From Corynebacterium sp. (lineage in GTDB: Bacteria; Actinomycetota; Actinomycetes; Mycobacteriales; Mycobacteriaceae): 64,000 nucleotides of DNA. The position numbers were made by a program, and so were the translations under genes. The DNA lies in the NCBI GenBank assembly GCA_030527885.1, contig JAUMZY010000001.1, positions 1-64,000 of the forward strand, given 5' to 3'. The notes beneath the pieces were generated by a model. That model had not been told where the DNA came from. It searched no databases and saw only the letters and a program-made list of their open reading frames with translations. This document shows, piece after piece, positions 29,625 through 54,479 of this stretch. Every line of letters starts with the position of its first letter. Position 1 is the stretch's first letter.

Positions 29625-29687
29625 TAAGCTCCCTTTTACGATCCAGCAGGGACTGAAAACGGCCTGATTGTTTGGAATAGGAGCTTA
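29625..29687 (-). repeat. 63-bp intergenic repeat, copy A1
   Basis: Bounded by TAAGCTCCC and an imperfect GGGAGCTTA (AGGAGCTTA). The TTTTACGATCCAG arm is on the left, so it is inverted relative to clusters C-E. Flanked on the left by GCTGCGGGTGTTC. Confidence 0.9.
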
Positions 29688-29748
29688 GAGGATATGCAGC
29701 ACAATTCTGTTCATTGATGTTCCCCCGGCCAAGAGGCTGCACGAGTTC

Positions 29749-29811
29749 TAAGCTCCCTTTTACGATCCAGCAGGAGCTGAAAACCGCTTAGTTCTCGGAA
29801 ATGAGAGCTTA
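29749..29811 (-). repeat. 63-bp intergenic repeat, copy A2
   Basis: Left end TAAGCTCCC with ACGATCCAG; right end slightly decayed (ATGAGAGCTTA). Same orientation as A1. Confidence 0.88.
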
Positions 29812-29834
29812 TCAGGTCCGCTGTGCTCGGTGGT

Positions 29835-29864
29835 TTGCTTGTCGACGACTCCGGCTTCCGCGGG
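29835..29864 (-). repeat. GTCGAC-centred cluster module, cluster A copy
   Basis: Reverse complement of the CTGCGG..CCGGAG..GTCGAC module found once in every cluster. It lies between A2 and A3, whose starts are 148 bp apart. Confidence 0.75.
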
Positions 29865-29896
29865 TCGGCCCTGTGGCGTAAGAGCTGCGGGTGTTC

Positions 29897-29959
29897 TAAG
29901 CTCCCTTTTACGATCCAGAGGGGGCTGAATGCGGCCTGGTTGTTAGGAATGGGAGCTTA
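29897..29959 (-). repeat. 63-bp intergenic repeat, copy A3
   Basis: Both ends perfect (TAAGCTCCC, GGGAGCTTA). Inverted orientation, with ACGATCCAG on the left. Confidence 0.92.
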
Positions 29960-30080
29960 TCAAGTGTGCGGCGGCAGCAGCAGAGGCTTTACGGGGCCTT
30001 GCGGGGGCTGGGCGGTGAGGGACCACTGGAACGTTGAGGTGTTGAGGCGTGGGGCGTCGAAAAGCTTGCAGCAGAACCCC

Positions 30081-30143
30081 TAAGCTCCCCTTCTGGTTTA
30101 CCCGGCGCTTTTCACACCGCCCTGAACCGAAAAAGGGAGCTTA
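30081..30143 (+). repeat. 63-bp intergenic repeat, copy A4
   Basis: TAAGCTCCCC to AAAGGGAGCTTA, exactly 63 bp, with a divergent middle. It is preceded by CGTCGAAAAGCTTGCAGCAG, the reverse complement of the right flank of copies D1 and E3. Confidence 0.88.
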
Positions 30144-30176
30144 GATCCACTGCTCCCATTCACCTAAGCCGGGCAT

Positions 30177-30203
30177 GCAAAAAGCCGCCCCGAAGGGCGG
30201 CCT
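30177..30203 (-). terminator. Terminator of fas
   Basis: GCCGCCC / GGGCGGC stem with a 4-nt loop. On the minus strand it is followed by TTTTTGC. It begins about 12 bases past the fas stop codon. Confidence 0.88.
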
Positions 30204-30214
30204 CAAGCTAACGG

Positions 30215-33200
30215 CTAGTCAGCTGCGGGGAAGGTACCATCTTCACCCAAGCGAACCGTATCATCCAGGATCACCTGGATTTCAGCAGCATCGGTACGCT
30301 GCTTCGGCAGACGCCGATCTTGCGGCTGTACGTAAAGATCGCCGCGGCCGAGCATGCCGGTTTCAAAGGCACGCTGGCCATCGCGCAGACGCTTGGTAGC
30401 GCGCTCACGCCATTGTTCACCAGCAACCTTTGCAAACACACCGGGGTGTGCCAGCACAACCACAGCAGCCACGTGGCCGAAGCCCAGGGAGGTCAGCACG
30501 CCGGCTTTCACCTCACCAACCTTCAGGGGTTCGCGCAGCCACACCAGGGACTTGGCCTTCGGCTCGATGGCCTTGTCCACACAGTCCAGGGAGGCATTCT
30601 GCGGCAGCTTGCCGTGCAGGAACACATCCACCAGACCGCCGATCTGGAAGAGCGCGGCACCACCCTTGGCGTGGCCGGTCAGGGACTTCTGGGAGATCAC
30701 GAACAGTGGGTTGGTTACGTCACGACCCAGGTGCTCCCACAGCACGGTGTGCAGCTGTGATTCGTTCGGGTCATTGGCGTTCGTGGACGTGTCGTGCTTG
30801 CTGACCACGCTCACATCGTCTGGGGTCAGGCCCAGGGAACGCAGCGACTTCGCCAGTGTCGAGTTCACGCCACCGCGACCGGCACCCAGGGCACCCAGGC
30901 CCGGCGCTGGGATGGAGGTGTGTGCACCGTCTGCGTAGGACTGTGCGTGTGCTACCACGGCGTAGACGGGTAGACCGAGTTCCTTGGCTACGCTGCCGCG
31001 GGCCAGGATCACGGTGCCGCCGCCTTCAGCTTCGAGGAAGCCGCCGCGGCGCCGGTCGTTGGCGCGGGAGATGAACCGGGAGTCGATGCCCTTGGCGTGC
31101 ATGGCTGCGGTTTCTGCGGTGGCGTTCATGTCGCCGAAGCCGGTCAGGGATTCGACCTGTACGTCATCAATGCCGCCGGCGATGACCACGTCGGACTTGC
31201 CGAGGCGGATCTTGTCCACGCCTTCTTCCACTGACACAGCGGCGGTAGCACAGGCGGCAACCGGGTGGATCATCTGGCCGTAACCACCCACGTAGGACTG
31301 CATCACGTGCGCTGCCACAACGTTGGGCAGGGCTTCTTGCAGGATGTCGCTGGGGCGGGCTTCTCCGAGGAAGCGGGTGACGAAGACCTTGTGCAGGCTC
31401 TCCATGCCACCGATGCCGGTGCCTTGGGTGGAGGACACGTAACCTGGGTGGACGGCTTGCAGCAGTTCCGTCGGGCTGAAGCCGGCGGTGAGGAAAGCGT
31501 CCACGGCGGTGATCAGGTTCCACACGGCGATGCGGTCGAGGCCGTCAAGCATTGACGGTGGGATGCCCCAGCGAGCTGGGTCGAAACCGTCGGGCATTTG
31601 GCCAGCCACGGTGCGGGTGAGGGTGGCTTTGCGCGGCACGCGGGCAATAGCGCCCTTCAGCTTGCGCACAACCCATTCACCGTCTTCGTTTCGGAAGATG
31701 CGGGTGTTTTCCTCATCGGCGGCCACGTAGTCGCGGGCTTCTTCTTCGGTGTCGACCACGAATTCAATTTCGCGGTCGAGGAAGACGGTGGCCACGTCGA
31801 TGGAGCCACGATCGGTGAGGAAGAACTTGTCAGTGAGTTCCCGGATGCCGGCGCGGGCGATGACTTCGTCGCGGAAGCGGTCGTAAATGTCCTCTTCAGC
31901 TACGGCTTGGTTATCGGCGTCGTACCAGGCGGGGGCCGGGTCTTCCTTCCAGGTGAGCAGGCCCATCATCCAGGCGAGTTCGAGCACGCCGGCGGCGGTG
32001 AGGTCCACGGAGCCGTCACGGTTGATACCGAACTCAGCTTCGTACCGGGTGCGGCCGGAGCCCCAGGAGCTGATTTCGCCCATGCCCACGATGACCACCA
32101 TGTCATCCAGGTCTTGGGTGATGTCGCCGGTGTCGATGGCGGCGGGTTGCTCGTGCCATACCGGGGTGGGCAGGGCCTTGATGGTGGCGGGCTTGTCGCC
32201 CTGTTCCTCGGCGGCTGCGGCAAGGGCGTGCCGATCCACGCGGGCTGCCAGTTCTGGCAGGGAGACCTTGGCGTCCGCGAGGCCACCGGTGAAGTCGCCG
32301 TCCAGTGGGGCGACCTTGGCGTTGGCGCGGGCTTGCTTGGTCACCAGGGTCAGCAGTTCATCCGCAATTTCGTTCGGATGATACACGTGGATGCCTTCGG
32401 CTTCGGCGATGGGCACCAGGGCGTCGTTGCCGCCCATGAGGTTGGTGCCGGCAACCCAGCCGATGTGTGCGTGCGCCAAGGTGACCTTTTCTGGCCAGCC
32501 CTTTTCCACCTTCCACTTGTTGACCATGGCGTCCAGCGCAGCCTTGACTTCGCCGTACGCGCCGTCGCCGCCGAAGGTGCCACGGTTCGGGGAACCGGGA
32601 AGCACCACGTGCACGGTGCTGCCTTCTTCTTGCAGGTCAGCGGCACCCGCGATGAGGCGTTGCAGGCTCCACAGCAGCAAACGGGTTTGGTTCTCCTGGG
32701 CGGGGCCGGCGTCGGTGAGCAGGCCGTGCACCTTGGGCGCAGCGAAGGGGAACAGCAGGGTTGGTACCAGGGCGGGCTTGGTCACCTGGGTGACGCCACC
32801 AACGGAGGCCTTTTGCTCCGCGCCGGCCCATGCCACGAGGGCATCAGTGTCGCGGAAGCTGGACAGGTTGGCGGGTGCCAGCCACAGGCTTGCGTGTGCC
32901 GAGGCGTGCTTGGCAAACATGATGCGGGCGAATTCCTTGCGGGCTTGGTCAACGCGCGAAGCCGTCATGATGACGGTTGCGCCACCAGCCAGCAGCTTTT
33001 CGACGATCGCACTGGCGATCGAATCCGGGGAGGCACCCGTCACGATGGCCACATCACCACGGTATGGTTCATCTGCTTCTTGCTGAGCCTCAGCAGCAAT
33101 GCGTTCCAAGGTTGCGGCCTGTTCAGGCTGCCGCTTGGCCCACCATTGTGCCTGGCCAGCGATGACATCGCCGAGACCAGCGAAGCGACCCGGTTCCGGA

Positions 33201-36200
33201 GTGATCTCACCGAGAGCCACCCGGGCGAGTTCTTCCCGGGCCACAGCCCAGCGGTCATCGAAGAGAATGGTGCGGCGTTCGTCGAAGACGGGTTGGACGT
33301 CTTGCAGCCAGCCGGTGCCCAACTCGGCATCCAGGGCTACGAACACATCTTCGTCTTCGAGGTTTTCCACCTCTGGGTCTGGGAGGTGCCCAAGCTCGGC
33401 CAAGATGGTGCGGGCATTCTGGGCCAGAATACCGTGGTAGCCGATGATCTTTTCAGCAAACTCGTCCAGAGCTGCGGAATCCACAGCCAACCCGGCGCCA
33501 CCACCGGCGGAGCCCAGGGAGACGCTGACACCTTCGCGGCGGGCTACGGCCTGAATGGCGTCGTCGATGAGGGCATCAGCCTCGGCTTTGTTCGCAACCT
33601 TGTTCGGCAATTCGCCGAGGTTGCCACCGCGGACGGATTCACCCTCCCGGGTGCCCAACAGTACTTCTGCTTCCACGTGGGGAACCCAGCTGCTTGGCAG
33701 GGCCCATGGGCCGGTGACCCGCTCCCCCACGTAGGCTGGCTTCACGCCGGCGGAGCCGAAGAGTTGGCGCAGCGTGGAGGTGTAGGCGTCAGTCAGAACT
33801 GGGCCGAAGGGCTTGTAGGTGGGGGCGGCGATGTTCACGCGCTGGTGTAGCACGGTGATTTCAGCATCGGCAGCGCCGTCGATGGCTGCCACGCCGAGTT
33901 CGGCGGACAGGTCCATGAGCAGCTGGTTTCGGCGGGAGGAGACGCCACCGGTGAGGATTTCGGTGGTGTCGTTGCCGGCGATTTGGTCCACGCGGATCTT
34001 GTTCTGGAAGGCGAACAGGACGTCGATGGCGTCAGCTGCGGTGAAGTTGAGCTCGGGTGCGGGGCCGGCGGCGGCAGCTGGTGCGGCTGGGGCCGGGGCT
34101 GCGGCGGGCTCAGGGGCAGCAGGAGCAGGAGCGGCTTCGGCGGCGGCCGGTGCCGGTTCAGCAGCGGCTGGGGTGGCTGGTGCAGCTGGTGCGGCGTCAG
34201 CAGGCTCGGGCTCGGGTTCGTCGAAGACGGGGGCCTGGGCAACGTCGTTAAGCATGACTACATCTTGGTCGCGCTCAACGTTGTACACGGGCACGTGCAC
34301 GCCGAGCACATCCATGCTGCGTAGTGCCAGGTTGGTCAGCGTTGGGGAGGCGGCAAGGCCGATTTCTACGATCTTGTCTACGCTCTCGATGAGCAGTTCC
34401 TGGGTTTCGATCCACCGGACGGGGGATGCGAATTGCCAGCTGAGCAGCTCAATCATCAGGGTGCGGACGAGGCTGTTTTCGTCGGCGTTGTCGAGATCCC
34501 ACTTGGCCAACCGGGTTGAGGGCACGACTTCGAGGATGGCGTCGATGAAATCTTGCGTCAGTTCGAATGGGCGTGCGACCAGGTTGGGCACGTACTTGCC
34601 CACCAGGGCATCCTTGTCGATCACTGGTGGCAGCAGTTCGTCGAGCTTCTCGGCGAAGGCCGGCACGCCGGGGCGCAGCACGGCGGAGTGGAATGGCACG
34701 TCGATGCCAGGGATCATCACGAAGGCCTTGGGATGGTTGGTGGCGGCTTGGAGTGCCTTCAACCCGGCCAGGGTGCCGGCCACTGCGTATTGCTGGCCAG
34801 CGATGTTGTAGTTGACGATCTCCAGGTATTCGCCGGTTTCTTCGGCTACCCGGTCCACGTAGTCGTTCACATCTTCGGCTGCAACACCGATCATGTTGGG
34901 GCGCAGGGCGCCCAGGCCGTAGTTGGAGCGGCCTTGCTCGTCGCGGGGCACCAGGGAGTGCATGGCGGAACCGCGGGAGTACACGATGTCAATAACAGCT
35001 TCAAGATCGAAAATGTTAGCGAGGGATGCCAGAGCGGTGTATTCGCCCAGGGAGTGGCCTGCATACATGTTCTTCGAGGATAGGGCACCTGCTACCCGCA
35101 GGCGTTCGGTCTGTCCGTACGCCACCACGGCCAGTGCCACCTGGGTGAACTGCGTGAGGTTGAGCACGCCCTTGGGGTGGCGGAAGGTGGTGTCGCCCAC
35201 CACCAGCTTGGTGGGATTGTTGTCGATCACATCAATGATGGAGAAGCCCAGGGACTTCTTGGTGTGCTTGTCGGCGCGCTCCCAGGCCTCGCGGGCGGCG
35301 GGGCAAGCCTGCCGGTCGCCTTGGCCCATACCCTTGGCTTGAATGCCCTGACCTGGGTAAACATAAGCGATGATGGGTTCTGCCAGAACAGCTTGGCCGC
35401 GGGAAACCACGTCGCCGTTGATGCGGCAGGTGACCTCCAGGGCAGGCTGCAGGCCAATGCGACCCACGCGCTCCACGGTGATTTCCACTTCGTCGTTAAG
35501 CTGCACCATGCCATACATGGAGTACGTCCAGCTTTGGACGGTGCCATGCCGGCCCGCAACCTGCTGCGCAGTAGCGGACAGCCACATGCCGTGCACCAGC
35601 GGGGCCACTAGGCCAACCAGCTGGGAGGCATTATAGGAGGTGTGGATGGGGTTGTAGTCGCCGGTGACGGTGGCGAAGGGGGTCATATCGGCGGGAGCCT
35701 TGACCACGGCGCGGTCCACGAAGGAGCGCGGGGTGTCGGTGATTTCGCCTTCTACCCCACCGTAAGCAGGCGCGGGAACGGGAACGTTGGTGCCGGATTG
35801 GCGGCCGCGGATGGCAAAGCGTTCCATCATGGTGGCAACGAGCTTGCCCTCGGAATACAGTTCCAGTTCCACGGTGACGATGCGGCCAGAGACGGATTCC
35901 GCGATGGAAGCGCACCGGCTGGTCACGTCGATTTGGCGGCCGTTGGCGAGCTCGGCGAGCTCCACCTTCAGGTCTACCACGTGGTCGAGGTGTACGGCGT
36001 TGAGCAGGCCTTCGATGACGGGGTAACCGTCGGCAAGCTTGCCGGTGCCCAGTGCGGTGTAAATGGCGGGCCAGCAGGGGCCAACCAGCACGTCCGGGGT
36101 GATTTCTGCCGGGTTGCCGCCGGCCACACCGGCGTGGGTGCGGGGCAGTTTCGCGGGCAGGTGGAAGCTGTCGTGCACGTCGCCCTTATCGTCGACGGTG

Positions 36201-39103
36201 GGCAGTGCGGTGATGTCATCGCCGGCGGCAGACTGCGAACCCACACCTGCTACGCCTGCTAGCAGGGCAAACACGGCATCGGGAAGGCGATCGTGCGACA
36301 CCACGGGGCTGGCGCCGGTGGATACGGATTCCGGCAACTCCAAGGGGATGTCCACATGCTTAACGTAATAAGGACGGTCAGCCTCGGGCAGGTGCTCCCA
36401 TGCGGAATCGGCGTTGATGCGCAGAATGAACTGGTTCTCGCCCTCTTCGATGAGGTCGAACGCAGTTTCGGGCAGGTGGTATGCCGGGTTATCAATAAGG
36501 TGGCCGTGCCAGGAGATGGTGCGGGCCTTCAGAATCGTCTCGGCGGCGGTGTCAGCCAGCCGGGAGAACGACTTGGCGGGCTCACCAGCAACCTTCTCTA
36601 CGCAAGCCTGTTCGAAGCGGCCCAGCAGGTCGGCAACGGGTTCATCCACCTTGGTGATGCCGCCCACGGAAATGGGGCCGGGGATGACGCGTACCGCATG
36701 AGCTGGGTAGCGATCATCTTGGGCCTGCCACAATGAATCCAGGCCGAACCAGCGCTTGAGATCGCCGTCAATGATCGGCACCCACGGCATAGGCTTGTGG
36801 TGCTTGCGGTTCAGCGTGATGAACCATGCGGCATCGCTGGGCTGCACGGTGATCTCGCGGGCCTGCGGGTACGCTGCCAGCAGCTTTTCGACGGCTGCCG
36901 GTGCCTCAGCAACCTCCTCAATGTCAGAGAAAAGGGTCTCTACTTCACCATGATCTTTTTCATTGAGACGTGCCTCAACACGGTGCAGTAGATCGAAGAA
37001 CCGATCATCCCACGTGGGGTCGGTGAAGGGGTAGGCCAATTCCACGAAGCGCTCAACCCACTCGGCATAGGTCATGTTTTCGACATTGCCGAAGTAAGGC
37101 TTTGCCGTTTTGTTGATGGCCTCGATGATTTCATCCGCATGATCCGCATAGGTATCGGGATCCAGGGAGGTGATGAGCCGCGAAGCCCGAGCAAAATCAT
37201 TGTCGATTTCGTACAGGTCTGCGAGCAGGTGCGACTGGCCGGAGGTCATGCCGCCATCGGACTTCAGGCGACCAACCCAGCCTTCTTCAATGCCAGGGGT
37301 GCCCACGAGCGCCTGCTTGACGGCGGTTGTGGTCTTGGCTTCCTTGGTGGCCATGGCTGCGGTACCGACGAGTATGCCGTCGATAGGCATGCGCTTGCGG
37401 CCATGCTTGAGTGCCCAATCACCGGAAATATACAGGGCGGCCTTCTCGGGGGTGCCGATGCCGCCGCCGACCACAATCACAACGTTGGGGCGCTGACGCA
37501 GCTCCTTGTAGGTGGCCAGCAGCAGATCATCCAGATCCACCCACGAGTGGTGACCGCCGGCATGGCCGTCTTCAATCTGCACGATGATGTCGGCATCCGG
37601 GTTAGCGTCGGCGATTTCCAGGACGCTGCGGATCTGGGCAACCGTACCCGGCTTGAACGCAATGTACGGGTAACCATCAGCATGCAGATCCTGAATGAGC
37701 TGGGTTGCTTCCTCCAGCTCAGGAATGCCAGCAGAAATGGTCACACCGTTGATAGCGGAACCAGCGGCGCGGGCCTTCGACACGATGCGCTGCTGCCCAA
37801 ACTGCAGGTTCCACATGTACCGGTCGAAGAACATGGAGTTGAACTGTGCAGTACGGCCGGGCTCCAGGAGGTTTTGCAGATTATCATTGTTGAAGTTGAA
37901 AACCTCTTCGGAATACTGGCCGCCACCAGCCATTTCCGCCCAGTGACCAGCATTAGCCGCAGCCGCCACAATGGTGGCATCCACGGTGGTGGGGGTCATG
38001 CCGGCCAAAATGATGGGCGACAAACCAGTGAGGCGGCTGAATGCAGTCTGCACCTTGTGCTCACCGGTGGGCAATTCCACAACGCGAGGCGCAAACTCGG
38101 TGAAGTCCACAACCTTGGGCAGCTCGGTGCCCGGGGTGGCAAGATCATCGCGCTTAGCAGGAGTGGAGCCATCCAAGATCACTGCGTCGGTTTGCTCAGA
38201 GGTGATCTGACCAAGGGCCTTATCCAAAGTGAGTAGGTAATCATGCTCCCCGACTTCCCACACATAAGGATCGACGAGGATGTAATCACCCAGGCGCTGC
38301 GCATCCGCTTTGATGCCACACTTTTCCGCCCATTCGACCAACTGTGCGACAGCCTCCCGATTGTGCTCATGGTGGAACGCGGCCTTCACACCGAGGTCAG
38401 CGAAGCTAACATCCACATGTTCCCCGCCTCGCTCATGCGTATCAATCGTGGCATTATGCTTATCGACGATTCCCGTCACCAGCCGCTTCACCAGCGCCAA
38501 CTCCGCACTATCACCGGAATACACGGCACGCACCGGACTATTGACCACCCCAGGACCAGTTGGCAACAACTCCACCGGCACGCCCCGCACGGACATCATG
38601 CGGCCAAAAGTAGCCTGCGACGCAGCAGCACCCAACAGGAATGCCAACGCCACATAATCAACCAGTTTTTCATCCTCAGCCCAATTATCACCAGGCAATT
38701 CAGAAAGCGCTTCAACCCCCAAGATACCTTGCGAATGACCATACGCCGTATAATTTTCCGGCTGCAAACCCAGCTGGCCCAATTGCGTCACAGCAGCAAT
38801 CTGACCTAATAAAATGCCTGGCACGGAAACAGCAGGTTCTGCATCGAGTTCTTCAGGTTTGATGTCATCCGCGGACTGGGATGCCACGATCTGCCGCAGT
38901 CGATTCAAACCACCAGGAACGATCTGTGACACTTCCCGGACCACGGGCGCAATCTTCAGCTGAGCTGCATCAATGAGGCTCTCCAGCTGGGTGCGGATAT
39001 ACGAATCAGTGCCAAATGCTACCAGGTTCTTTTGCCAGGCAGAGGCTTGTCCACCAAACAACACACCAACATTGGTTATTGCATGTAGGGGGGAAAGGTT
39101 CAT
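30215..39103 (-). CDS. fas: Type I fatty acid synthase
   Basis: 2962 residues, close to the usual length of corynebacterial FAS-I (about 2970-3000). Order: acetyltransferase (GHSQG at 122-126), enoyl reductase (ILAGMTPTTVDATI near 366), dehydratase of MaoC type (TGDYNPIHTSYN near 1150), malonyl/palmitoyl transferase (GHSLGEYTALAS near 1350), an Ala/Pro linker, ACP (GGVSSRRNQLLMDL near 1724, Ser for phosphopantetheine), ketoreductase (VTGASPDSIASAI near 2025), and ketosynthase (ACATAAVSVEEG near 2619; SKHDTSTNANDPNE; SLTGHAKGG). It makes C16/C18 acyl-CoA. There is no fused phosphopantetheinyl transferase. The gene is flanked by repeat clusters A and B and sits between whiB1 and sigH, away from the order seen in M. 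tuberculosis. Confidence 0.95.
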   Translation of the reverse strand: MNLSPLHAITNVGVLFGGQASAWQKNLVAFGTDSYIRTQLESLIDAAQLKIAPVVREVSQIVPGGLNRLRQIVASQSADDIKPEELDAEPAVSVPGILLGQIAAVTQLGQLGLQPENYTAYGHSQGILGVEALSELPGDNWAEDEKLVDYVALAFLLGAAASQATFGRMMSVRGVPVELLPTGPGVVNSPVRAVYSGDSAELALVKRLVTGIVDKHNATIDTHERGGEHVDVSFADLGVKAAFHHEHNREAVAQLVEWAEKCGIKADAQRLGDYILVDPYVWEVGEHDYLLTLDKALGQITSEQTDAVILDGSTPAKRDDLATPGTELPKVVDFTEFAPRVVELPTGEHKVQTAFSRLTGLSPIILAGMTPTTVDATIVAAAANAGHWAEMAGGGQYSEEVFNFNNDNLQNLLEPGRTAQFNSMFFDRYMWNLQFGQQRIVSKARAAGSAINGVTISAGIPELEEATQLIQDLHADGYPYIAFKPGTVAQIRSVLEIADANPDADIIVQIEDGHAGGHHSWVDLDDLLLATYKELRQRPNVVIVVGGGIGTPEKAALYISGDWALKHGRKRMPIDGILVGTAAMATKEAKTTTAVKQALVGTPGIEEGWVGRLKSDGGMTSGQSHLLADLYEIDNDFARASRLITSLDPDTYADHADEIIEAINKTAKPYFGNVENMTYAEWVERFVELAYPFTDPTWDDRFFDLLHRVEARLNEKDHGEVETLFSDIEEVAEAPAAVEKLLAAYPQAREITVQPSDAAWFITLNRKHHKPMPWVPIIDGDLKRWFGLDSLWQAQDDRYPAHAVRVIPGPISVGGITKVDEPVADLLGRFEQACVEKVAGEPAKSFSRLADTAAETILKARTISWHGHLIDNPAYHLPETAFDLIEEGENQFILRINADSAWEHLPEADRPYYVKHVDIPLELPESVSTGASPVVSHDRLPDAVFALLAGVAGVGSQSAAGDDITALPTVDDKGDVHDSFHLPAKLPRTHAGVAGGNPAEITPDVLVGPCWPAIYTALGTGKLADGYPVIEGLLNAVHLDHVVDLKVELAELANGRQIDVTSRCASIAESVSGRIVTVELELYSEGKLVATMMERFAIRGRQSGTNVPVPAPAYGGVEGEITDTPRSFVDRAVVKAPADMTPFATVTGDYNPIHTSYNASQLVGLVAPLVHGMWLSATAQQVAGRHGTVQSWTYSMYGMVQLNDEVEITVERVGRIGLQPALEVTCRINGDVVSRGQAVLAEPIIAYVYPGQGIQAKGMGQGDRQACPAAREAWERADKHTKKSLGFSIIDVIDNNPTKLVVGDTTFRHPKGVLNLTQFTQVALAVVAYGQTERLRVAGALSSKNMYAGHSLGEYTALASLANIFDLEAVIDIVYSRGSAMHSLVPRDEQGRSNYGLGALRPNMIGVAAEDVNDYVDRVAEETGEYLEIVNYNIAGQQYAVAGTLAGLKALQAATNHPKAFVMIPGIDVPFHSAVLRPGVPAFAEKLDELLPPVIDKDALVGKYVPNLVARPFELTQDFIDAILEVVPSTRLAKWDLDNADENSLVRTLMIELLSWQFASPVRWIETQELLIESVDKIVEIGLAASPTLTNLALRSMDVLGVHVPVYNVERDQDVVMLNDVAQAPVFDEPEPEPADAAPAAPATPAAAEPAPAAAEAAPAPAAPEPAAAPAPAAPAAAAGPAPELNFTAADAIDVLFAFQNKIRVDQIAGNDTTEILTGGVSSRRNQLLMDLSAELGVAAIDGAADAEITVLHQRVNIAAPTYKPFGPVLTDAYTSTLRQLFGSAGVKPAYVGERVTGPWALPSSWVPHVEAEVLLGTREGESVRGGNLGELPNKVANKAEADALIDDAIQAVARREGVSVSLGSAGGGAGLAVDSAALDEFAEKIIGYHGILAQNARTILAELGHLPDPEVENLEDEDVFVALDAELGTGWLQDVQPVFDERRTILFDDRWAVAREELARVALGEITPEPGRFAGLGDVIAGQAQWWAKRQPEQAATLERIAAEAQQEADEPYRGDVAIVTGASPDSIASAIVEKLLAGGATVIMTASRVDQARKEFARIMFAKHASAHASLWLAPANLSSFRDTDALVAWAGAEQKASVGGVTQVTKPALVPTLLFPFAAPKVHGLLTDAGPAQENQTRLLLWSLQRLIAGAADLQEEGSTVHVVLPGSPNRGTFGGDGAYGEVKAALDAMVNKWKVEKGWPEKVTLAHAHIGWVAGTNLMGGNDALVPIAEAEGIHVYHPNEIADELLTLVTKQARANAKVAPLDGDFTGGLADAKVSLPELAARVDRHALAAAAEEQGDKPATIKALPTPVWHEQPAAIDTGDITQDLDDMVVIVGMGEISSWGSGRTRYEAEFGINRDGSVDLTAAGVLELAWMMGLLTWKEDPAPAWYDADNQAVAEEDIYDRFRDEVIARAGIRELTDKFFLTDRGSIDVATVFLDREIEFVVDTEEEARDYVAADEENTRIFRNEDGEWVVRKLKGAIARVPRKATLTRTVAGQMPDGFDPARWGIPPSMLDGLDRIAVWNLITAVDAFLTAGFSPTELLQAVHPGYVSSTQGTGIGGMESLHKVFVTRFLGEARPSDILQEALPNVVAAHVMQSYVGGYGQMIHPVAACATAAVSVEEGVDKIRLGKSDVVIAGGIDDVQVESLTGFGDMNATAETAAMHAKGIDSRFISRANDRRRGGFLEAEGGGTVILARGSVAKELGLPVYAVVAHAQSYADGAHTSIPAPGLGALGAGRGGVNSTLAKSLRSLGLTPDDVSVVSKHDTSTNANDPNESQLHTVLWEHLGRDVTNPLFVISQKSLTGHAKGGAALFQIGGLVDVFLHGKLPQNASLDCVDKAIEPKAKSLVWLREPLKVGEVKAGVLTSLGFGHVAAVVVLAHPGVFAKVAGEQWRERATKRLRDGQRAFETGMLGRGDLYVQPQDRRLPKQRTDAAEIQVILDDTVRLGEDGTFPAAD

Positions 39104-39500: not shown

Positions 39501-39563
39501 TAAGCTCCCATTCCCACGGAACCGGCCTTTTCCGGGGCCGTCTGGATCGAGAAAGGGAGCTTA
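39501..39563 (+). repeat. 63-bp intergenic repeat, copy B1
   Basis: TAAGCTCCCATTCC at the left; TGGATCGAGAAAGGG then AGCTTA at the right. Forward orientation. Confidence 0.92.
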
Positions 39564-39595
39564 GACAACCTGATACCCATCCAGGATGGCCGCGA

Positions 39596-39626
39596 CCTGC
39601 GGAATCCGGAGCCGTCGACAGTCAAA
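39596..39626 (+). repeat. GTCGAC-centred cluster module, cluster B copy
   Basis: CCTGCGGAATCCGGAGCC then GTCGAC, between B1 and B2 (starts 148 bp apart). Confidence 0.78.
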
Positions 39627-39648
39627 CACCCCACGACAGCACACCTGA

Positions 39649-39711
39649 TAAGCTCCCATTCCCATCAACTAGACCCCTTTGCGTCTTACCTGGATCGAGA
39701 AAGGGAGCTTA
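39649..39711 (+). repeat. 63-bp intergenic repeat, copy B2
   Basis: Perfect ends; right arm TGGATCGAGAAAGGG. Left flank CACACCTGA as in cluster C. Confidence 0.92.
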
Positions 39712-39789: not shown

Positions 39790-39852
39790 TAAGCTCCCAT
39801 TCGCACAAACCGAGGCGCTCTGAATGCCTCTCGGATTGGGAATGGGAGCTTA
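39790..39852 (+). repeat. 63-bp intergenic repeat, copy B3
   Basis: Perfect ends. Both arms are of the ATTC/GAAT type, without the GGATCG arm. Confidence 0.9.
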
Positions 39853-44086: not shown

Positions 44087-44149
44087 TAAGCTCCCTTTCC
44101 CACTAAACCCAGCCTCTCACCCCTCCACTGGATCGTAAAAGGGAGCTTA
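44087..44149 (+). repeat. 63-bp intergenic repeat, copy C1
   Basis: Perfect ends; right arm TGGATCGTAAAAGGG. Right flank GAACACCCGCAGCCCC. Confidence 0.93.
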
Positions 44150-44180
44150 GAACACCCGCAGCCCCACACCCTAGAGCCAA

Positions 44181-44210
44181 CCTGCGGAAGCCGGAGCCGT
44201 CGACAAGCAA
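44181..44210 (+). repeat. GTCGAC-centred cluster module, cluster C copy
   Basis: CCTGCGGAAGCCGGAGCC then GTCGACAAGCA, between C1 and C2 (starts 147 bp apart). Confidence 0.8.
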
Positions 44211-44233
44211 GCACGCCGCGACAGCACACCCGA

Positions 44234-44296
44234 TAAGCTCCCATTCTGGTTTACCCAGCGATTTTCCGACGGCACTAAAACGAGAAAGGGAGCTTA
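44234..44296 (+). repeat. 63-bp intergenic repeat, copy C2
   Basis: Perfect ends. The middle resembles A4 (TTCTGGTTTACCC near the left arm). Confidence 0.92.
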
Positions 44297-44347: not shown

Positions 44348-44410
44348 TAAGCTCCCATTCCCGCTAAAACCGCCTCTTTTACAAACCACCCCCATCAGAA
44401 TGGGAGCTTA
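44348..44410 (+). repeat. 63-bp intergenic repeat, copy C3
   Basis: TAAGCTCCCATTCC / GAATGGGAGCTTA. Both arms are of the ATTC type. Confidence 0.92.
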
Positions 44411-44485: not shown

Positions 44486-44548
44486 TAAGCTCCCTTTCCC
44501 GCCAAACCCGGCCTTCCGCAGCCCTTCTGGATCGTAAAAGGGAGCTTA
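44486..44548 (+). repeat. 63-bp intergenic repeat, copy C4
   Basis: Nearly identical to C1, including the TGGATCGTAAAAGGG arm and the right flank GAACACCCGCAGCCCC. Confidence 0.93.
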
Positions 44549-46560: not shown

Positions 46561-46562
46561 GA

Positions 46563-47180
46563 TTACTTGCTTGGCCTTCCTGCTTGCTTGGTTGCTTGCT
46601 TTTCGACGGCATCCGTACCAATGCCGTATTCATGTGCTACATCCTTTAACACTTCCCGCAGTTGTTTTCTTCCCCGGTGCAAGCGACTCATGACCGTTCC
46701 CACAGGTGTGCCCATGATTTCCGCAATTTCCTTGTACGACAACCCCTCCACATCGGCATAGTAAACCACCATGCGATAATCCTCCGCCAAATCATTCATG
46801 GCATTAGAAATCTTCTGATCCGGAATATTCTTCAGCGCCGCAACCTCTGTCGACTCCAACCCCACCGCCATATGCGTCGAAGAATCCAACAGCTGATAAT
46901 CGGTCACCTCTTCCGCCGAAGACTGCGCTGGCTGCCGCTGCTTCTTCCGATAGGAATTGATATACGCATTGGTCATGATGCGGTACAACCAAGCCTTCAG
47001 GTTGGTTCCCTGCGTGAAAGACCCAAAGGCCTGAAAAGCCTTAATGTAGGTTTCTTGCACCAGATCTTCCGCATCCGCCGGGTTGCGGGTCATGCGTAAC
47101 GCACCACCATAGAGCTGGTCAATGAGTGGCAGTGCCTCAGCCTCAAAGCGCTTGTGTAATTCCGGTGTAGTTGCAGCCAT
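46563..47180 (-). CDS. sigH: ECF sigma factor SigH
   Basis: 205 residues. Region 2 ([20 protein letters not shown]) and region 4 ([20 protein letters not shown], then RLHRGRKQL) are intact. It controls the thiol-oxidative and heat response (thioredoxin, Clp, mycothiol genes) with RshA as its partner. It is divergent from the ybaK-like gene, with about 77 bases between them. SigH normally autoregulates through a GGAA..GTT promoter, but I could not see a convincing copy in that short gap. Confidence 0.93.
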
Positions 47181-47758: not shown

Positions 47759-47801
47759 TAGGGTATTTACAGGTGGATTTTAATCAAGTATTTATTAAAG
47801 C

Positions 47802-48856: not shown

Positions 48857-48886
48857 CCTGCGGAAGCCTGCGCCGTCGACAAGCAA
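48857..48886 (+). repeat. GTCGAC-centred cluster module, cluster D copy
   Basis: CCTGCGGAAGCCTGCGCC then GTCGACAAGCA, upstream of D1. A possible decayed 63-bp element end (CTGAATCGAAA at 48823-48833) lies before it. Confidence 0.75.
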
Positions 48887-48909
48887 ACACCCCATGACAG
48901 CACCCCCGA

Positions 48910-48972
48910 TAAACTCCTATTCCGGCCAAATCCAACCTCCCGCACCTTTTCTGGATCGTAAAAGGGAGCTTA
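48910..48972 (+). repeat. 63-bp intergenic repeat, copy D1
   Basis: Left end TAAACTCCTATTCC (two changes); right arm TGGATCGTAAAAGGG and AGCTTA. Right flank GGGGTTCTGCTGC then GCTTTTCGACG. Confidence 0.9.
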
Positions 48973-49058
48973 GGGGTTCTGCTGCAAGCTTTTCGACGCC
49001 CGACGCCCCAGCACCCCAATGCTCCAGCCCCGCAAAGCCTCTGCTGCCGCACACCTAC

Positions 49059-49121
49059 TAAGCTCCCATTCCCACGGGTCGAACCATTTTCAACCACACC
49101 TGGATCGTAAAAGGGAGCTTA
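49059..49121 (+). repeat. 63-bp intergenic repeat, copy D2
   Basis: Perfect ends, with the TGGATCGTAAAAGGG arm. Confidence 0.92.
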
Positions 49122-49173
49122 TCAATCCTGCTGCACCCGCATCCCTCCTACCCCAGCCAAGCCACGCATTCGA

Positions 49174-49236
49174 TAAGCTCCCATTCCCGGGAAATGGGCC
49201 ACATTCAAAGCCCGCCAGGGTGGGAAAGGGAGCTTA
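49174..49236 (+). repeat. 63-bp intergenic repeat, copy D3
   Basis: Perfect ends. Inner arms ATTCCC / GGGAAA. Right flank GAACACCCGCAG. Confidence 0.92.
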
Positions 49237-49333
49237 GAACACCCGCAGTCTCAACCACTGAACGCCTAGATCCAGAAAACCCCAAGGCCGCAAACCCCCG
49301 CATGCAGCCGAAAAGCCCACTTTTACCTTTATT

Positions 49334-50647
49334 ATGGTTCACATGACAGAAAATCACAGCCCCTTTCAATACTGGAACGCACCTCTTGCCACCGAACCCA
49401 TCACAGCAACTGTGCAAGTGCCGGGTTCTAAATCCATCACGAACCGGGCGTTGATTTTAGCCGCCATTGCCGAAAACCCTTCCACCATCACCAGCGCCCT
49501 GTGGTCCCGGGATACGCAACTCATGGTGCAGGCCCTCAAGCGCATCGGCGTGGATGTGCAGGTGGAACCTGATTCGGAGAATCCCGCCAATGTGACGGTC
49601 TTCGTCGAACCAACCAGGTTCACCGGCGGCATGGTGGATTGCGGACTGGCGGGAACTGTCATGCGGTTTGTGCCGCCGTTGGCGGCGTTGGCGGACGGCG
49701 TTGTGTTTTTCGATGGTGACGCGCATGCCCGGAATCGCCCCATGAAGGGGATTCTGGATGGGTTGCGCAGCCTGGGCATAGCGGTCAAGGGGGATGCCCT
49801 GCCATTTGAGGTGTCCAGTGATGGGGCGCCGGTCGGGGGCACGGTGGAGATCGACGCCTCGGCCTCCTCGCAGTTCGTGTCGGGTTTGTTGTTGGCGGCG
49901 CCGCGGTTTGCCGAGGGGTTGACAGTCAAACATGTGGGCGAAAATTTGCCCAGTTTGCCACACATTGAAATGACCGTTGATATGTTGCGGCAGGCCGGCG
50001 CGAGTGTGGATACCACGGTGGAAAACCAGTGGTCAGTGGCATCGGGGCCGATTCGGGGCGGCGTGGTGCGGGTGGAGCCGGATCTATCCAACGCCACCCC
50101 GTTTTTGGCGGCGGCAGCGGTGACCAGTGGCACGGTGACCGTGCCGCATTGGCCGGCGCCAACGAATCAGCCAGGTGATGCGATTCAGGGCATTCTTAAG
50201 CAGATGGGCTGCACTGTTAGCGATGGCCTGACTGTCACGGGTCCGCCCGCCGGCAAACTCCGCGGCATCGAACTTGATATGTCCGCAATTGGGGAGCTTA
50301 CGCCCACCGTTGCGGCCCTGGCTGCGTTGGCGAATTCGCCGTCGCGGTTGACTGGCATCGCACATTTGCACGGCCACGAAACAGACCGTCTTAAGGCTCT
50401 GACCACCGAAATTAACAAGGTTGGTGGCAAATGCACTGAGCTTTTCGACGGCCTAGCCATCGAACCATCCACCGAATTGCATGGGGCACAGTGGTCCAGT
50501 TATGCTGACCATCGCATGGCCACCGCCGGAGCGATCATTGGCTTGGTCATTCCTGATGTTGCGGTGGAGGATATCGAAACCACAGCAAAAACCCTACCGG
50601 GGTTTGAACGAATGTGGGCGGCAATGCTGCACGAAGAGGAGCTGTAG
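49334..50647 (+). CDS. aroA: 3-phosphoshikimate 1-carboxyvinyltransferase (EPSP synthase)
   Basis: 437 residues; the start is the ATG at 49334, or 49343 (MTENHSPF). Substrate-binding elements are present: [51 protein letters not shown] and the C-terminal [15 protein letters not shown]. It condenses shikimate-3-phosphate with PEP in the shikimate pathway. It is followed by rsgA after a gap of 4 bases, so the two genes are coupled. Confidence 0.95.
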
Positions 50648-50651
50648 CGCA

Positions 50652-51644
50652 GTGGCACGTTCGTGGGATGAATCTGATGTGAAGATCCGCCCGTCCAAGG
50701 GGTCGCGGCCGCGGACCAAGGATCGGCCGAAGCATGCCAATGCGAAGTTTGGGATGGTGGTCACCAAGGATCGGGGCCGGTGGGGCGTGGTGTTGGATGG
50801 TCAGGAACATCCGATCGTGTGCATGCGCGCCCGCGAGATGGGGCGCACACCAGTGGAGGTGGGCGACCGGGTCGGCATTGTGGGAGATACTTCGGGCCGT
50901 AAGGATACGCTGGCGCGGATTGTAAAACTGGCGGAGCGAACCTCTGTATTGCGGCGCACCGCTGACGACACTGATCCTTATGAACGGATCGTGGTGGCCA
51001 ATGCAGAGCAACTGCTGATTGTGTGCGCGGTGGCGGATCCGCCGCCGCGGTTGGGGTTTGTGGAGCGGGCGTTGGTGGCTGCGTTTGTGGGAAATTTGCA
51101 ACCGATCATTTGTTTGACCAAGTCGGATTTGGCAGATCCCACGGAGTTCGCCACTGAGTTCGAAGCCCTGAATGTGCCGGTGGTGGTGTGCGGGATTGAC
51201 GACCCATTGGAGCCAGTTTTAGGCCTTGTTGCTGACCACATCACTGCCCTGGTTGGGCATTCCGGCGTGGGCAAATCCACCCTGGTCAACCGCATCATTC
51301 CGGATGCGCAGCGGGAGATCGGGGAGGTTTCCGGAGTAGGGAAAGGCCGGCATACCTCCACCCAGGCAGTGGCTTTGCGCCTTGAGCCCAATGGGTGGAT
51401 CATTGACACACCAGGGATTCGGTCCTTTGGGTTGGCACATGTGGATGCCGACACTGTTGTAGGTGTGTTCGAAGACCTGGCGGAGGCAGTGGCGGAGTGC
51501 CCCCGGGGATGCACGCATGCTGGGCCGCCAACCGATCCGGAATGTGAGCTGGATTCTTTTGAACCAGACTCCCCCACCGGCCGGCGGGTGGTAGCGGTGC
51601 GGAAACTCTTGGCCGCCCTGCGGACCAATGTGGAGTGGAAATAG
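50652..51644 (+). CDS. rsgA: Ribosome small-subunit GTPase RsgA
   Basis: 330 residues from the GTG at 50652. The longer upstream frame overlaps aroA and is not family-like. An N-terminal OB domain (FGMVVTKDRGRWGVVLDG) is followed by a circularly permuted GTPase, G4 TKSDL before G1 GHSGVGKST and G3 IDTPGIRSFG, and a zinc finger (CPRGCTHAGPPTDPEC). It checks late 30S assembly. It is co-transcribed with aroA. Confidence 0.93.
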   Translation: MARSWDESDVKIRPSKGSRPRTKDRPKHANAKFGMVVTKDRGRWGVVLDGQEHPIVCMRAREMGRTPVEVGDRVGIVGDTSGRKDTLARIVKLAERTSVLRRTADDTDPYERIVVANAEQLLIVCAVADPPPRLGFVERALVAAFVGNLQPIICLTKSDLADPTEFATEFEALNVPVVVCGIDDPLEPVLGLVADHITALVGHSGVGKSTLVNRIIPDAQREIGEVSGVGKGRHTSTQAVALRLEPNGWIIDTPGIRSFGLAHVDADTVVGVFEDLAEAVAECPRGCTHAGPPTDPECELDSFEPDSPTGRRVVAVRKLLAALRTNVEWK

Positions 51645-51687
51645 GTTCCCTGTTTCTGGTGGGCTTGGCGGGGCCTGGCGTACCTTA

Positions 51688-52401: not shown

Positions 52402-52470
52402 GAAAATACTCCTGTAGCAGATCAACAATATAACTCCATCCTATTACTAAATCGAGAGTTTGCTACAGGT
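52402..52470 (-). promoter_or_regulatory. Inverted repeat overlapping the ribosome site of lipoprotein 1
   Basis: TGCTACAGG (52461-52469) and CCTGTAGCA (52411-52419) are perfect complements about 41 bases apart. On the minus strand the second arm runs into the AGGAG ribosome site next to the ATG. It could be an operator or an RNA hairpin that hides the site. The same arrangement precedes lipoprotein 2. Confidence 0.6.
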
Positions 52471-52529
52471 TTACCTAATCAAATCCGCCATAAACCCAAT
52501 CATCCGATCAATTGGGTGTAGGCCTATAG

Positions 52530-53207
52530 CTAGGGAGCACAGCTGAAGGTTGTGCCACTAAAGTTAATTTGCAGCGTGGAATTTTCACCAAAGAGGCTAG
52601 CGAGCCGCTCGTCGATAAAAAGCTTGATCTGGTCATCAAAAGCCACTACATCTATCTTTGTTGAGCTCGGAACTTGGGGAACTTCCTGGCCATTGTACCC
52701 ATTGATTTTCGCACTCATGGCCCTATTATTTTGAACCGTTATCGCTACCTCTACATGGGGTTTGGATAAATCCCCCGAAATCGAAAACACCTGAAGCGTC
52801 GCCTCTTGGTCCTCGGGGAACAATTGGTTAACCTTAAAAATCACCAGCTTACGCTTGTCTTCTAGGTCCACCATGGAACCACCGCTTAGCGTGAAATTAC
52901 CAGCGGAACCCGCACCAGGGGCATCAGTCTTCGTTGCTTTGCACTGATTAAAATTATGTTCGCTACCGGGAACAGGTGTCCCTTCGGGCACGTTGCTCGC
53001 GCTGGTGGTGCTGGCAGCACCTGTTTCTGAGGCTTCCGACGTAGAGATACTGCTGGCGGGCGCCGCCGATGAGCTCGACGTGGTGGCTGATCCCGAGACG
53101 CTCTCCCGTGCTGTGAGGTTCACGAGGCTTTGCATGCCGCATCCCACCAAAAGCGGCACGGTACACAGAACTGTAAAACCTAAACGTATGGGGGATAATT
53201 TGCGCAT
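52530..53207 (-). CDS. Putative lipoprotein, tandem paralogue 2
   Basis: About 225 residues from the ATG at 53207 (MRKLSPIRLG). The lipobox is LLVGC. A Ser/Thr/Ala linker is followed by a globular domain paralogous to the previous gene (KLVIFKVNQLFPEDQEATLQ; IKLFIDERLASLFGENST), ending TFSCAP. The shared gene and upstream sequence show that the pair arose by tandem duplication that included the promoter. Confidence 0.72.
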   Translation of the reverse strand: MRKLSPIRLGFTVLCTVPLLVGCGMQSLVNLTARESVSGSATTSSSSAAPASSISTSEASETGAASTTSASNVPEGTPVPGSEHNFNQCKATKTDAPGAGSAGNFTLSGGSMVDLEDKRKLVIFKVNQLFPEDQEATLQVFSISGDLSKPHVEVAITVQNNRAMSAKINGYNGQEVPQVPSSTKIDVVAFDDQIKLFIDERLASLFGENSTLQINFSGTTFSCAP

Positions 53208-53275
53208 GAAACACTCCTGTAGCAGATCAAAAATATAACTCAACCCTATTACCAAATTGGCGCTTTGCTACAGGT
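53208..53275 (-). promoter_or_regulatory. Inverted repeat overlapping the ribosome site of lipoprotein 2
   Basis: CCTGTAGCA at 53216-53224 and TGCTACAGG at 53266-53274, with the same 41-base spacing as in the first copy. The AT-rich interior differs slightly between copies, but the arms are identical. Confidence 0.6.
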
Positions 53276-53350
53276 TCGCCCAATCAAATTCACCATAAAC
53301 CCAATCATCCGACCAATTGGGTGTGGGGCCGGTGGGCGTCGAAAAGCTGC

Positions 53351-54039
53351 CTAAGCATTGCACCGAGTCACGGCTGCTTTGCTCGTGAACTCAAAAACAC
53401 TCTTCGCGGAGAAATACTTAACGAAATTCGGATTCACATATAACGCCACCGTGCTGGTACCTGCCGACATCGGCATGATTTCGTTGCCACTTTGATCAAT
53501 CTCCGCAATTTCTTTTTGCTTGGCTGGGTCTTCCGACCCATAATCCACCAACGGATTCTTCTTAAAAATGCTCTGCAGATTGATCTTCATGAACACCCGC
53601 GCACCCTCAGCCTCCTCGGACCACAGCGTCAGGGTCATCTCCTGATCAGCATCCACCCCCGCCAGATCGAATTAAAATAGCCTTTGCTTATCAATACTGT
53701 CGGCCATGATCGCGCCGACCAACGCCGGCTGATCCTCTGGCTTGAGCTGATCAATAGGTAAAACCTCCACAGAATCCGTACGCTTCACGGTGCACTTGTT
53801 GAAGTCCACCCGCGTCCCCTCAACCACGTTGCCGCCATCGCGTCCGCCTGCCCCAGGAGCAACTTCATCTTTGCTGGTGGTCGCGGCGGCCGCGGTCGTG
53901 GTCTCCGCAGGCTGCGAGGCAGAAGACGACTCCCCACCAATCAGATTCGTCACAGAGGAACACCACTCAGCAGCGGCGCCACCAGCAGGAGCGCGCACAC
54001 AGGCTTCATCAGAGTCGAGTACCGGCGGCTTTTGAGCAT
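53351..54039 (-). pseudogene. Third lipoprotein paralogue, disrupted
   Basis: Starts at the ATG at 54039 (MLKSRRYSTLMKPVCALLLV). The frame shifts inside the lipobox: one frame reads APLLSGVPL then stop, the other AEWCSSVTNLIGG; a single missing base after AGTGG would give LLSGCSS. The frame then runs to TAA at about 53675 (DKQRLF then stop) and continues in the same frame as FDLAGVDADQEMTLTLW, matching the paralogues' LPEDQE region, to the end at 53351 (VTRCNA). It carries two lesions, one frameshift and one nonsense codon, in an otherwise recognisable gene. Confidence 0.82.
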
Positions 54040-54166
54040 GATTTTCCTTAATTCCCGTCCAATTGGTTCACTACCATTCTTGCCACCTTTGCTTTTCGAC
54101 GCCACCCCTAGCCCCTCTTCATCAGAGGTATCCACCCACTACACCCCAGCCCCGCTGCACACCCGA

Positions 54167-54229
54167 TAAGCTCCCATTCCGGCCAAACCCAGCCTCCCAC
54201 ACCCCACCTGAATCGTAAAAGGGAGCTTA
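54167..54229 (+). repeat. 63-bp intergenic repeat, copy E1
   Basis: Perfect ends; right arm TGAATCGTAAAAGGG. Flanks as in C1 (ACACCCGA and GAACACCCGCAGCCCC). Confidence 0.93.
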
Positions 54230-54261
54230 GAACACCCGCAGCCCCCACACCACAGGTCCAA

Positions 54262-54290
54262 CCTGCGGAAGCCGGAGCCGTCGACAAGCA
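54262..54290 (+). repeat. GTCGAC-centred cluster module, cluster E copy
   Basis: CCTGCGGAAGCCGGAGCC then GTCGACAAGCA, identical in this stretch to the cluster C copy; between E1 and E2 (starts 147 bp apart). Confidence 0.8.
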
Positions 54291-54313
54291 CCCACCCAGC
54301 ACAGCACACCCGA

Positions 54314-54376
54314 TAAGCTCCTATTCCGAAGAATTAGGCTGCGTTTAAAGCCTGCTGGGGTGGGAATGGGAGCTTA
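54314..54376 (+). repeat. 63-bp intergenic repeat, copy E2
   Basis: TAAGCTCCTATTCC / GGAATGGGAGCTTA. Confidence 0.9.
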
Positions 54377-54415
54377 TCAGCGTTGCTACACTCCACAGCC
54401 ACACAGCACACTTGA

Positions 54416-54479
54416 TAAGCTCCCATTTTGGGAAAGGCGGGGCGCATTCAGACCCCTCTGGATCGTAAAAGGGAGCTTA
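54416..54479 (+). repeat. 63-bp-type intergenic repeat, copy E3 (64 bp)
   Basis: TAAGCTCCCATTTT / TGGATCGTAAAAGGG and AGCTTA. This is the only copy of 64 bp, one base longer in the middle. Right flank GGGGTTCTGCCGC then GCTTTTCGACG, as for D1. Confidence 0.9.

What the first reader, a model, noticed from the sequence alone, without database searches (positions are those of the whole stretch)
29625..54479. A 63-bp palindrome-ended intergenic repeat family with invariant length, 17 copies in 25 kb
Seventeen elements lie in five clusters of 4, 3, 4, 3 and 3. Nearly all begin TAAGCTCCC and end GGGAGCTTA, with a few one- or two-base changes at the ends. Sixteen are exactly 63 bp and E3 is 64, although the middles differ strongly. 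Constant length with variable middle suggests that the distance between the two ends is what selection keeps. At 10.5 bp per turn, 63 bp is six turns, so both ends would face the same side of the helix (inference). Only about 12 outer bases pair, so an RNA hairpin alone does not explain the fixed length. I do not know a named family that fits.
Basis: partly seen in the sequence, partly recalled or inferred. Interest (0 to 1): 0.88.

Follow-up and report, generated by a model that had tools for sequence, protein, structure and literature searches.

The report
Fixed-length paired DNA sites in Corynebacterium
Short mirror-image DNA tags sit a nearly fixed distance apart, dozens of times between genes, in several related bacteria; the tag letters change from species to species but the distance stays, or shifts by about one turn of the DNA helix, which suggests an unknown protein that grips both tags.

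Summary
In detail: 17 elements in five clusters, 16 of 63 bp and one of 64. The rest of contig C9 holds 11 more (62-63 bp) and a 37-bp form; on the other 24 contigs the model's best score is E 0.82.

Three congeners have the same architecture: G154 with altered half-sites, G104 and G026 with quite different ones. Lengths stay at about 61-65 bp. G154 adds a class at 72-73 bp, one helical turn longer, with nothing at 65-71.

G154 interiors are no more alike than shuffled ones. In G104 the two arms are not coupled overall. Close copies have fewer indels inside elements than in flanks. This favours a double-stranded protein-binding 'ruler' site over an RNA hairpin.

G104 and G026 elements leave a gap round a dif-like site, as nucleoid-occlusion sites do. 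The gap is significant only if clusters are independent (G104: p 5e-6, or 0.03 if grouped).

REPINs are the nearest known architecture. No target-site duplication was seen, but larger units have been copied, so mobility is a serious rival. No binding protein is known; function is unproven.

The parts
29625..29687 (-). element E1, 63 bp
29749..29811 (-). element E2, 63 bp
29812..29896 (-). repeated spacer module between E2 and E3
29897..29959 (-). element E3, 63 bp
30081..30143 (+). element E4, 63 bp
39501..39563 (+). element E5, 63 bp
39564..39648 (+). repeated spacer module between E5 and E6
39649..39711 (+). element E6, 63 bp
39790..39852 (+). element E7, 63 bp
44087..44149 (+). element E8, 63 bp
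44150..44233 (+). repeated spacer module between E8 and E9
44234..44296 (+). element E9, 63 bp
44348..44410 (+). element E10, 63 bp
44486..44548 (+). element E11, 63 bp
48910..48972 (+). element E12, 63 bp, two mismatches in the left end
49059..49121 (+). element E13, 63 bp
49174..49236 (+). element E14, 63 bp
54167..54229 (+). element E15, 63 bp
54230..54313 (+). repeated spacer module between E15 and E16
54314..54376 (+). element E16, 63 bp
54416..54479 (+). element E17, 64 bp

Best explanation
Each element is a bipartite double-stranded DNA site: two inverted half-sites of about 12-14 bp (here TAAGCTCCCATTCC) held at a fixed helical spacing, bound by an unidentified protein that grips both and bridges or wraps the DNA between. 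Such sites lie in intergenic clusters of one to seven on the chromosome arms, so the protein more likely acts on the chromosome as a whole than on single genes. Shown: fixed spacing, a one-turn step in one species, half-sites that differ between species. Supported but not proven: selection against indels, lack of arm coupling, a gap round the terminus. Inferred: that a protein binds, that it bridges, and what it does.
For: Length. G104: 98 exact-end copies whether 56-72 bp or 46-76 bp is scanned; of 82 analysed, 59 are 60 bp, 20 are 59, 2 are 61, 1 is 63 between 7-mer ends (15 similar cluster mates left out by eye are also 59-60, and the copy missing from the listing is 60). G026: 60 copies, of 58 listed 57 are 59-61. 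G154 whole genome, 44-74 bp scanned: 28 copies, 20 of 60-61, 7 of 70-71, 1 of 52 between 7-mer ends, reversed control 0; in 280 kb with up to 2 mismatches, full lengths 62 x6, 63 x11, 64 x1, 72 x2, 73 x5, single hits at 14 other lengths, none at 57-61 or 65-71. G154 interiors are no more alike than shuffled (mean 5.94 vs 5.82, maximum 10 in both) though the ends are nearly invariant. In C9 56 of 83 half-site hits (about 24 expected by chance) are in 62-64-bp pairs; in G154 42 of 84 (25 expected) are in 62-64 or 72-73-bp pairs. G104 arms: 3.707 symmetric inner positions against 3.687 when re-dealt, p 0.44. Indels among close copies at 85% identity: 1 gap with 141 substitutions in elements, 10 with 91 in flanks, Fisher 0.0008; at 80%: 12/256 vs 36/201. 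Phasing of neighbours, pooled: 65 distances, best period 10.7, p 0.0004. Gap round a dif-like site: 434 kb to the nearest cluster in G104 (39 clusters, p 5e-6), 226 kb in G026 (42, p 0.002).
Against: No binding protein was found, nor searched for genome-wide. Interiors in the window and in G026 are partly shared and larger units have been copied, so part of the constancy is common descent. The gap round dif weakens when clusters within 60 kb are taken as one: p 0.03 in G104, 0.17 in G026; in G154 it holds only if two hits (G154:1145765 and 1744523) are dropped (p 4e-4 without them, 0.08 with them; grouped 0.16 and 0.48). Arm positions 9 and 11 alone show coupling in G104 (p 0.0035 and 0.023), and in C9 cells with changes on both sides exceed shuffles (28 vs 19.6, 7 of 500), which relatedness can also give. 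The indel contrast is not seen with looser gap costs (equal ratios) and is too small to test at 90% identity (1/41 vs 2/32); pairs are not independent. Phasing: G104 alone peaks at 11.6 and C9 at 11.8, unique distances in G104 are not significant. The 37-bp copy is out of phase. Inner bases fold somewhat better than shuffled ones (mean z about -0.8).
Confidence: 0.5

Rival explanations
1. REPIN- or MITE-like non-autonomous mobile elements: the ends are what a transposase in trans recognises and the length is a property of the moving unit; there is no host function.
For: Inverted conserved ends, less conserved middle, near-constant distance and intergenic clusters are REPIN features (PMC3116915 passages). 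[quoted passage not shown] Homologous units of up to about 225 bp, some inverted, link clusters in C9. Counts differ between species: 22 (own), 27 (G154), 98 (G104), 60 (G026), 40 (G225).
Against: 1 of 112 elements has identical 3-bp flanks. G154 interiors share nothing detectable while the ends are nearly invariant. The 62-64/72-73 step needs a special reason. No GTAG/CGTC tag and no stem within each end (read from the sequences). Of three identical dispersed copies in G026, two (312 kb, 876 kb) lie in a 1.47-kb duplication; the third (610 kb) was not examined.
Confidence: 0.33
2. Transcribed structured RNA (hairpin) elements, e.g. processing or termination signals in 3' regions.
For: Ends pair; interiors fold slightly better than shuffled ones; weak covariation signals (positions 9 and 11); AAGCTCCC hairpins with short loops that look like terminators occur in several congeners.
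Against: No overall arm coupling in G104; RNAalifold finds only the outer stem, with 0 (A1) and 1 (A3) compensatory pairs; a 10-bp step in loop length is not expected of a hairpin; no T-run after window copies and mixed orientation (by eye).
Confidence: 0.1
3. Nothing selected: old duplicated intergenic DNA whose ends are kept alike by gene conversion among copies.
For: Modular duplicated spacers and homology between clusters; no indel contrast with loose gap costs.
Against: Same spacing in species with different ends; fewer indels inside than outside with stricter costs; unrelated interiors in G154.
Confidence: 0.07

Closest known systems
REPIN (REP doublet forming hairpin), Pseudomonas fluorescens
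   Same: Two highly conserved inverted end sequences, a less conserved spacer, near-constant distance (71 bp between first residues of the 16-mers in type GI), extragenic, in clusters (passages of PMC3116915).
   Different: No GTAG-type tag and no stem within each end (read from the sequences); a one-turn length step in G154; RAYT gene not tested.
Noc (NBS) and SlmA (SBS) binding sites
   Same: Dozens of palindromic sites over the chromosome, under-represented round the terminus (passages of PMC4726725).
   Different: NBS are 14-bp palindromes, not two half-sites about 63 bp apart; no binding protein known here; the terminus gap here is only suggestive; C. glutamicum was judged likely to lack a nucleoid-occlusion protein (passage of PMC3566199).
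BOX / BIME mosaic repeats
   Same: Modular arrays with shared spacers in intergenic DNA.
   Different: Fixed spacing between two short ends; no Rfam match to the elements at gathering score. BOX and BIME details are recalled.
C. diphtheriae stem-loop family Cod-5
   Same: Intergenic, 74 bp, 35 copies (29 full length), same genus by inference (table passages of PMC2267715).
   Different: Its sequence was not seen; a link to the 72-74-bp class is only a lead.

Membership tests
REPIN | two inverted conserved ends at near-constant distance | tested here: met
REPIN | each end is a REP: a small palindrome tagged GTAG or CGTC | tested here: not met
   ends TAAGCTCCCATTCC, AAAGCTCCACTTCC and (A/T)ACTCGACCTTTT carry no such tag and only a 4-bp self-complementary core (read; tag definition from PMC3733652 listing and passages)
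REPIN | RAYT transposase in the genome | not tested
MITE | terminal inverted repeats | tested here: met
MITE | target-site duplication | tested here: not met
   1 of 112 elements with identical 3-bp flanks; of 72 set/boundary/length combinations 2 were flagged, both in G026 (2 vs 0.36 and 3 vs 0.76 expected)
MITE | homologous body among copies | tested here: inconclusive
   C9 7.93 vs 5.89 shuffled (shared body); G154 5.94 vs 5.82 (none)
Noc/SlmA-type sites | depleted round the terminus | tested here: inconclusive
   p 5e-6 (G104) and 0.002 (G026) for independent clusters, 0.03 and 0.17 when grouped within 60 kb; G154 depends on two dropped hits. The dif motif is recalled; each genome had one further hit with 2 mismatches elsewhere
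Noc/SlmA-type sites | bound by a division inhibitor | not testable with these tools
   -
structured RNA family | compensatory changes between arms within a genome | tested here: inconclusive
   none overall in G104 (p 0.44) but positions 9 and 11 p<0.05; weak excess in C9 on one measure (7 of 500 shuffles)

The most novel reading that the evidence does not exclude
The elements are loading sites of an undescribed nucleoid-occlusion or chromosome-arm organising protein of corynebacteria, which lack Noc and SlmA: a bridging protein that measures its site by helical turns and whose DNA-binding specificity has been replaced between species while the ruler stayed fixed.
Probability: 0.15. Interest if true: 0.93.

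Novelty: new variant of a known kind. Interest (0 to 1): 0.72.

Why it matters
If the reading is right, some corynebacteria have a large set of chromosomal sites defined by distance rather than by one sequence, with half-sites that turn over between species. That would be a handle on how actinobacteria without Min, Noc or SlmA tie division to the chromosome, and a natural experiment on co-evolution of a DNA-binding protein with dozens of sites at once. Even if the elements are mobile, a one-turn length step would be unusual for a REPIN-like unit (my judgment from memory; not searched for).

Tried and rejected
Rfam on the window gave only a tRNA. The exact window ends in genome contigs gave 47 hits in other taxa, no more than my chance estimate of about 100 for 18 bases at 26 spacings (the tool may leave out the own or a very near genome), and I dropped them. 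The covariance model run over 242 genus genomes gave 10 at E<=0.001, mostly short-loop hairpins that look like terminators, set aside; G154 was found this way. In one search only 150 of 489 first-look candidates were scored. A conserved inner stem was tried by eye and by counting: 50.7% of cells paired. In one search, 88 of 242 genomes have a hit; besides G104, G026 and G225 the highest are G185 (10), G074 (8), G188 (6); many hits of 66-69 bp share a GATCCGGTTCATCGATGAA-like body and are another repeat. G185, G188 and G225 were not followed. The first indel comparisons were spoilt by free end gaps and overlapping windows or loose gap costs (no contrast) and replaced. Gene context gave no clear preference (its ORF caller also made ORFs across elements). 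De novo searches: G214 and G135 showed no such family; G259 has two loci with nested GACTTCA pairs at 64 bp (4 pairs, shuffled top 3), not counted as a family. The 1310-aa ORF between clusters 2 and 3 has no Pfam match at E<=1.

Print: listings (open-licence library only; two searches found no paper); no listed title or abstract start describes this family. Passages were read; no paper was read whole.
Full report
1. What is there. Thirteen match the exact ends; 100 shuffles give none. The window is bases 1-64000 of contig C9 (189.6 kb) of an assembly of 1.64 Mb in 25 contigs, 53% complete. C9 holds 28 elements (25 of 63 bp, two of 62, one of 64) and one 37-bp form. A covariance model of the 28 finds these 29 places on C9 and, on the other contigs, one partial match at E 0.82 (150 of 489 first-look candidates scored). 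The exact-end pattern finds 18 copies, all on C9. A mixed assembly is not excluded as the reason for that confinement.

2. Surroundings. Elements lie between genes. Near them are an ORF of 2962 aa (30215-39103; by length and place a type I fatty-acid synthase, not tested), SigH (46563-47180, TIGR02947), AroA (49334-50647, TIGR01356), RsgA (50481-51644, PF03193), a DUF4185 and a DUF6912 protein. Spacers within clusters share modules, and BLAST links clusters through stretches of up to about 225 bp, some inverted, so composite units have been copied within this genome.

3. G154. Among 242 genus genomes AAGCTCC ends 44-60 bp apart occur 22 times in the own genome and 27 times in G154; 25 others have 1-2 hits, not above the reversed-pattern control. 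C9 is syntenic along its length with G154:1.974-2.152 Mb. From, four C9 gaps with elements (near 30, 44, 49 and 78 kb) match gaps with elements in G154; the other C9 gaps (39.5, 54, 95, 155, 159-161, 173 kb) do not, and several G154 sites have no C9 partner. The G154 half-site is AAAGCTCCACTTCC. In 280 kb, lengths are 62 (6), 63 (11), 64 (1), 72 (2), 73 (5), with single hits at 14 other lengths and none at 57-61 or 65-71. Genome-wide, of 28 exact copies 20 are 60-61, 7 are 70-71 and 1 is 52 between 7-mers. Interiors of 24 elements are no more alike than shuffled ones; flanks look unrelated by eye.

4. A different half-site. A search for any recurrent inverted pair in the regions syntenic by AroA found ACTCGACC ends in G104 and G026, at 61-63 bp with 8-mer ends. 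Genome-wide there are 98 copies in G104, 60 in G026, 40 in G225 (reversed controls 2, 0, 0). Scanning 46-76 instead of 56-72 bp adds none in G104 or G026. The 82 G104 copies analysed are 59-61 bp between 7-mers but for one of 63; in G026 57 of 58 listed are 59-61. A further congener, G126, has seven 72-bp elements with CCCGACATTAC ends in 200 kb, with a shared interior and a nested 58-bp pair; it may be an analogue. G214 and G135 showed nothing alike.

5. Why a ruler. (a) The spacing survives replacement of the ends. (b) G154's long class is 8-11 bp longer and its seven members have no detectable common body. (c) In G104 the two arms vary independently over positions 8-14 (3.707 symmetric positions against 3.687, p 0.44), although positions 9 and 11 alone reach p 0.0035 and 0.023; in C9 one of five covariation measures clearly exceeds shuffles, which relatedness can give. 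(d) Among close paralogues, elements have 1 gap with 141 substitutions and flanks 10 with 91 at 85% identity, 12/256 and 36/201 at 80%, 1/41 and 2/32 at 90%; with looser gap costs there was no contrast, and pairs are not independent. (e) Starts of neighbouring elements, one distance per distinct value and cluster, show a period of 10.7 bp when pooled (65 distances, p 0.0004). Single genomes at 10.5: G104 p 0.011, G154 0.027, G026 0.12, C9 0.12; G104 and C9 alone peak at 11.6 and 11.8. Shared spacer modules make some distances dependent.

6. Where on the chromosome. A dif-like site (recalled motif, 1-2 mismatches) with the core CCGATAATGTACATTATGTCA lies at 1.490 Mb in G104, 1.690 in G026 and 1.342 in G154; each genome has one more hit without that core. 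In G104 no listed copy lies between 1.023 and 1.924 Mb, a gap centred within 20 kb of the site; in G026 none between 1.464 and 2.065 Mb. Nearest clusters are 434 and 226 kb away (p 5e-6 and 0.002 if clusters are independent). Grouping clusters within 60 kb gives p 0.03 and 0.17. In G154 the gap depends on dropping two doubtful hits (p 4e-4 without, 0.08 with them). So the gap is suggestive, strongest in G104. Coordinate 1 is at dnaA in G104 and G026 (named from recalled sequence). In G104 the nearest copies to it are 162 kb and about 226 kb away; in G026 219 kb on one side, the other side not fully seen. Sampled terminus DNA of G104 has 0 element-like pairs in 48 kb against 56 in 312 kb of arms, but the arm stretches were partly chosen for elements and the terminus sample is denser in ORFs (0.92 against 0.87).

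7. Mechanism. I take the element as a bipartite double-stranded site on which a protein oligomer grips both half-sites at a helically fixed spacing. Shown: anatomy, spacing, step, species differences. Inferred: the protein, bridging, a chromosome-scale role. A terminus gap recalls Noc and SlmA sites (PMC4726725, passages). Corynebacteria are said to lack both, and C. glutamicum was judged likely to lack a nucleoid-occlusion protein because septa close over DNA without parB (PMC3566199, passages); that speaks against the boldest reading, at least in that species.

8. Known relatives. REPINs are the nearest architecture (PMC3116915 passages), and REP dimers can have spacers of similar length and different sequence (PMC3733652 passage). 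The present elements lack the REP tag and per-end stem and show no target-site duplication; RAYT presence could no longer be tested. So they may work like a REPIN as a copying unit but fail a defining feature of membership. A 74-bp C. diphtheriae family, Cod-5 (PMC2267715 table passages), is a lead only.

9. Verdict. Function is unproven and mobility is the chief rival.

Noticed in passing
L084, L087, L090, L091, L092, L094 (congener loci): Short-loop hairpins with AAGCTCC- or AGCTCC-type stems in intergenic DNA of several congeners look like intrinsic terminators and share the stem sequence of the element ends.
   Followed up: partly
G074:C1:1679545-1679823 and 1854441-1854646: Seven 60-bp ACTCGAC..GTCGAGT units in two tandem clusters with a 73-bp period, perhaps another member of the architecture.
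   Followed up: no
G126:C1:824583, 833311, 859044, 859250, 859456, 937134, 937300: Seven 72-bp elements with CCCGACATTAC ends and long imperfect arms.
   Followed up: partly
many congeners, e.g. G088:C1:92019-92086: Dispersed 66-69-bp ACTCGAC..GTCGAGT pieces with a shared GATCCGGTTCATCGATGAA-like body, probably part of a coding or insertion sequence.
   Followed up: no
window 39892-43824 (-): ORF of 1310 aa between clusters 2 and 3 without a Pfam match at E<=1 and 47% identical in G154, where its two neighbours are 68% and 92%.
   Followed up: partly
G104 and G026 right arms; G104 left arm: Element interiors are GT-rich on the + strand of the right arm (0.73 and 0.63 against 0.53 and 0.52 in other intergenic DNA) and AC-rich on the left arm of G104; C9 shows 0.43 against 0.49, G154 no such excess.
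   Followed up: partly
G026:C1:312 kb and 876 kb: A 1.47-kb stretch duplicated at 91% identity beside element clusters.
   Followed up: no
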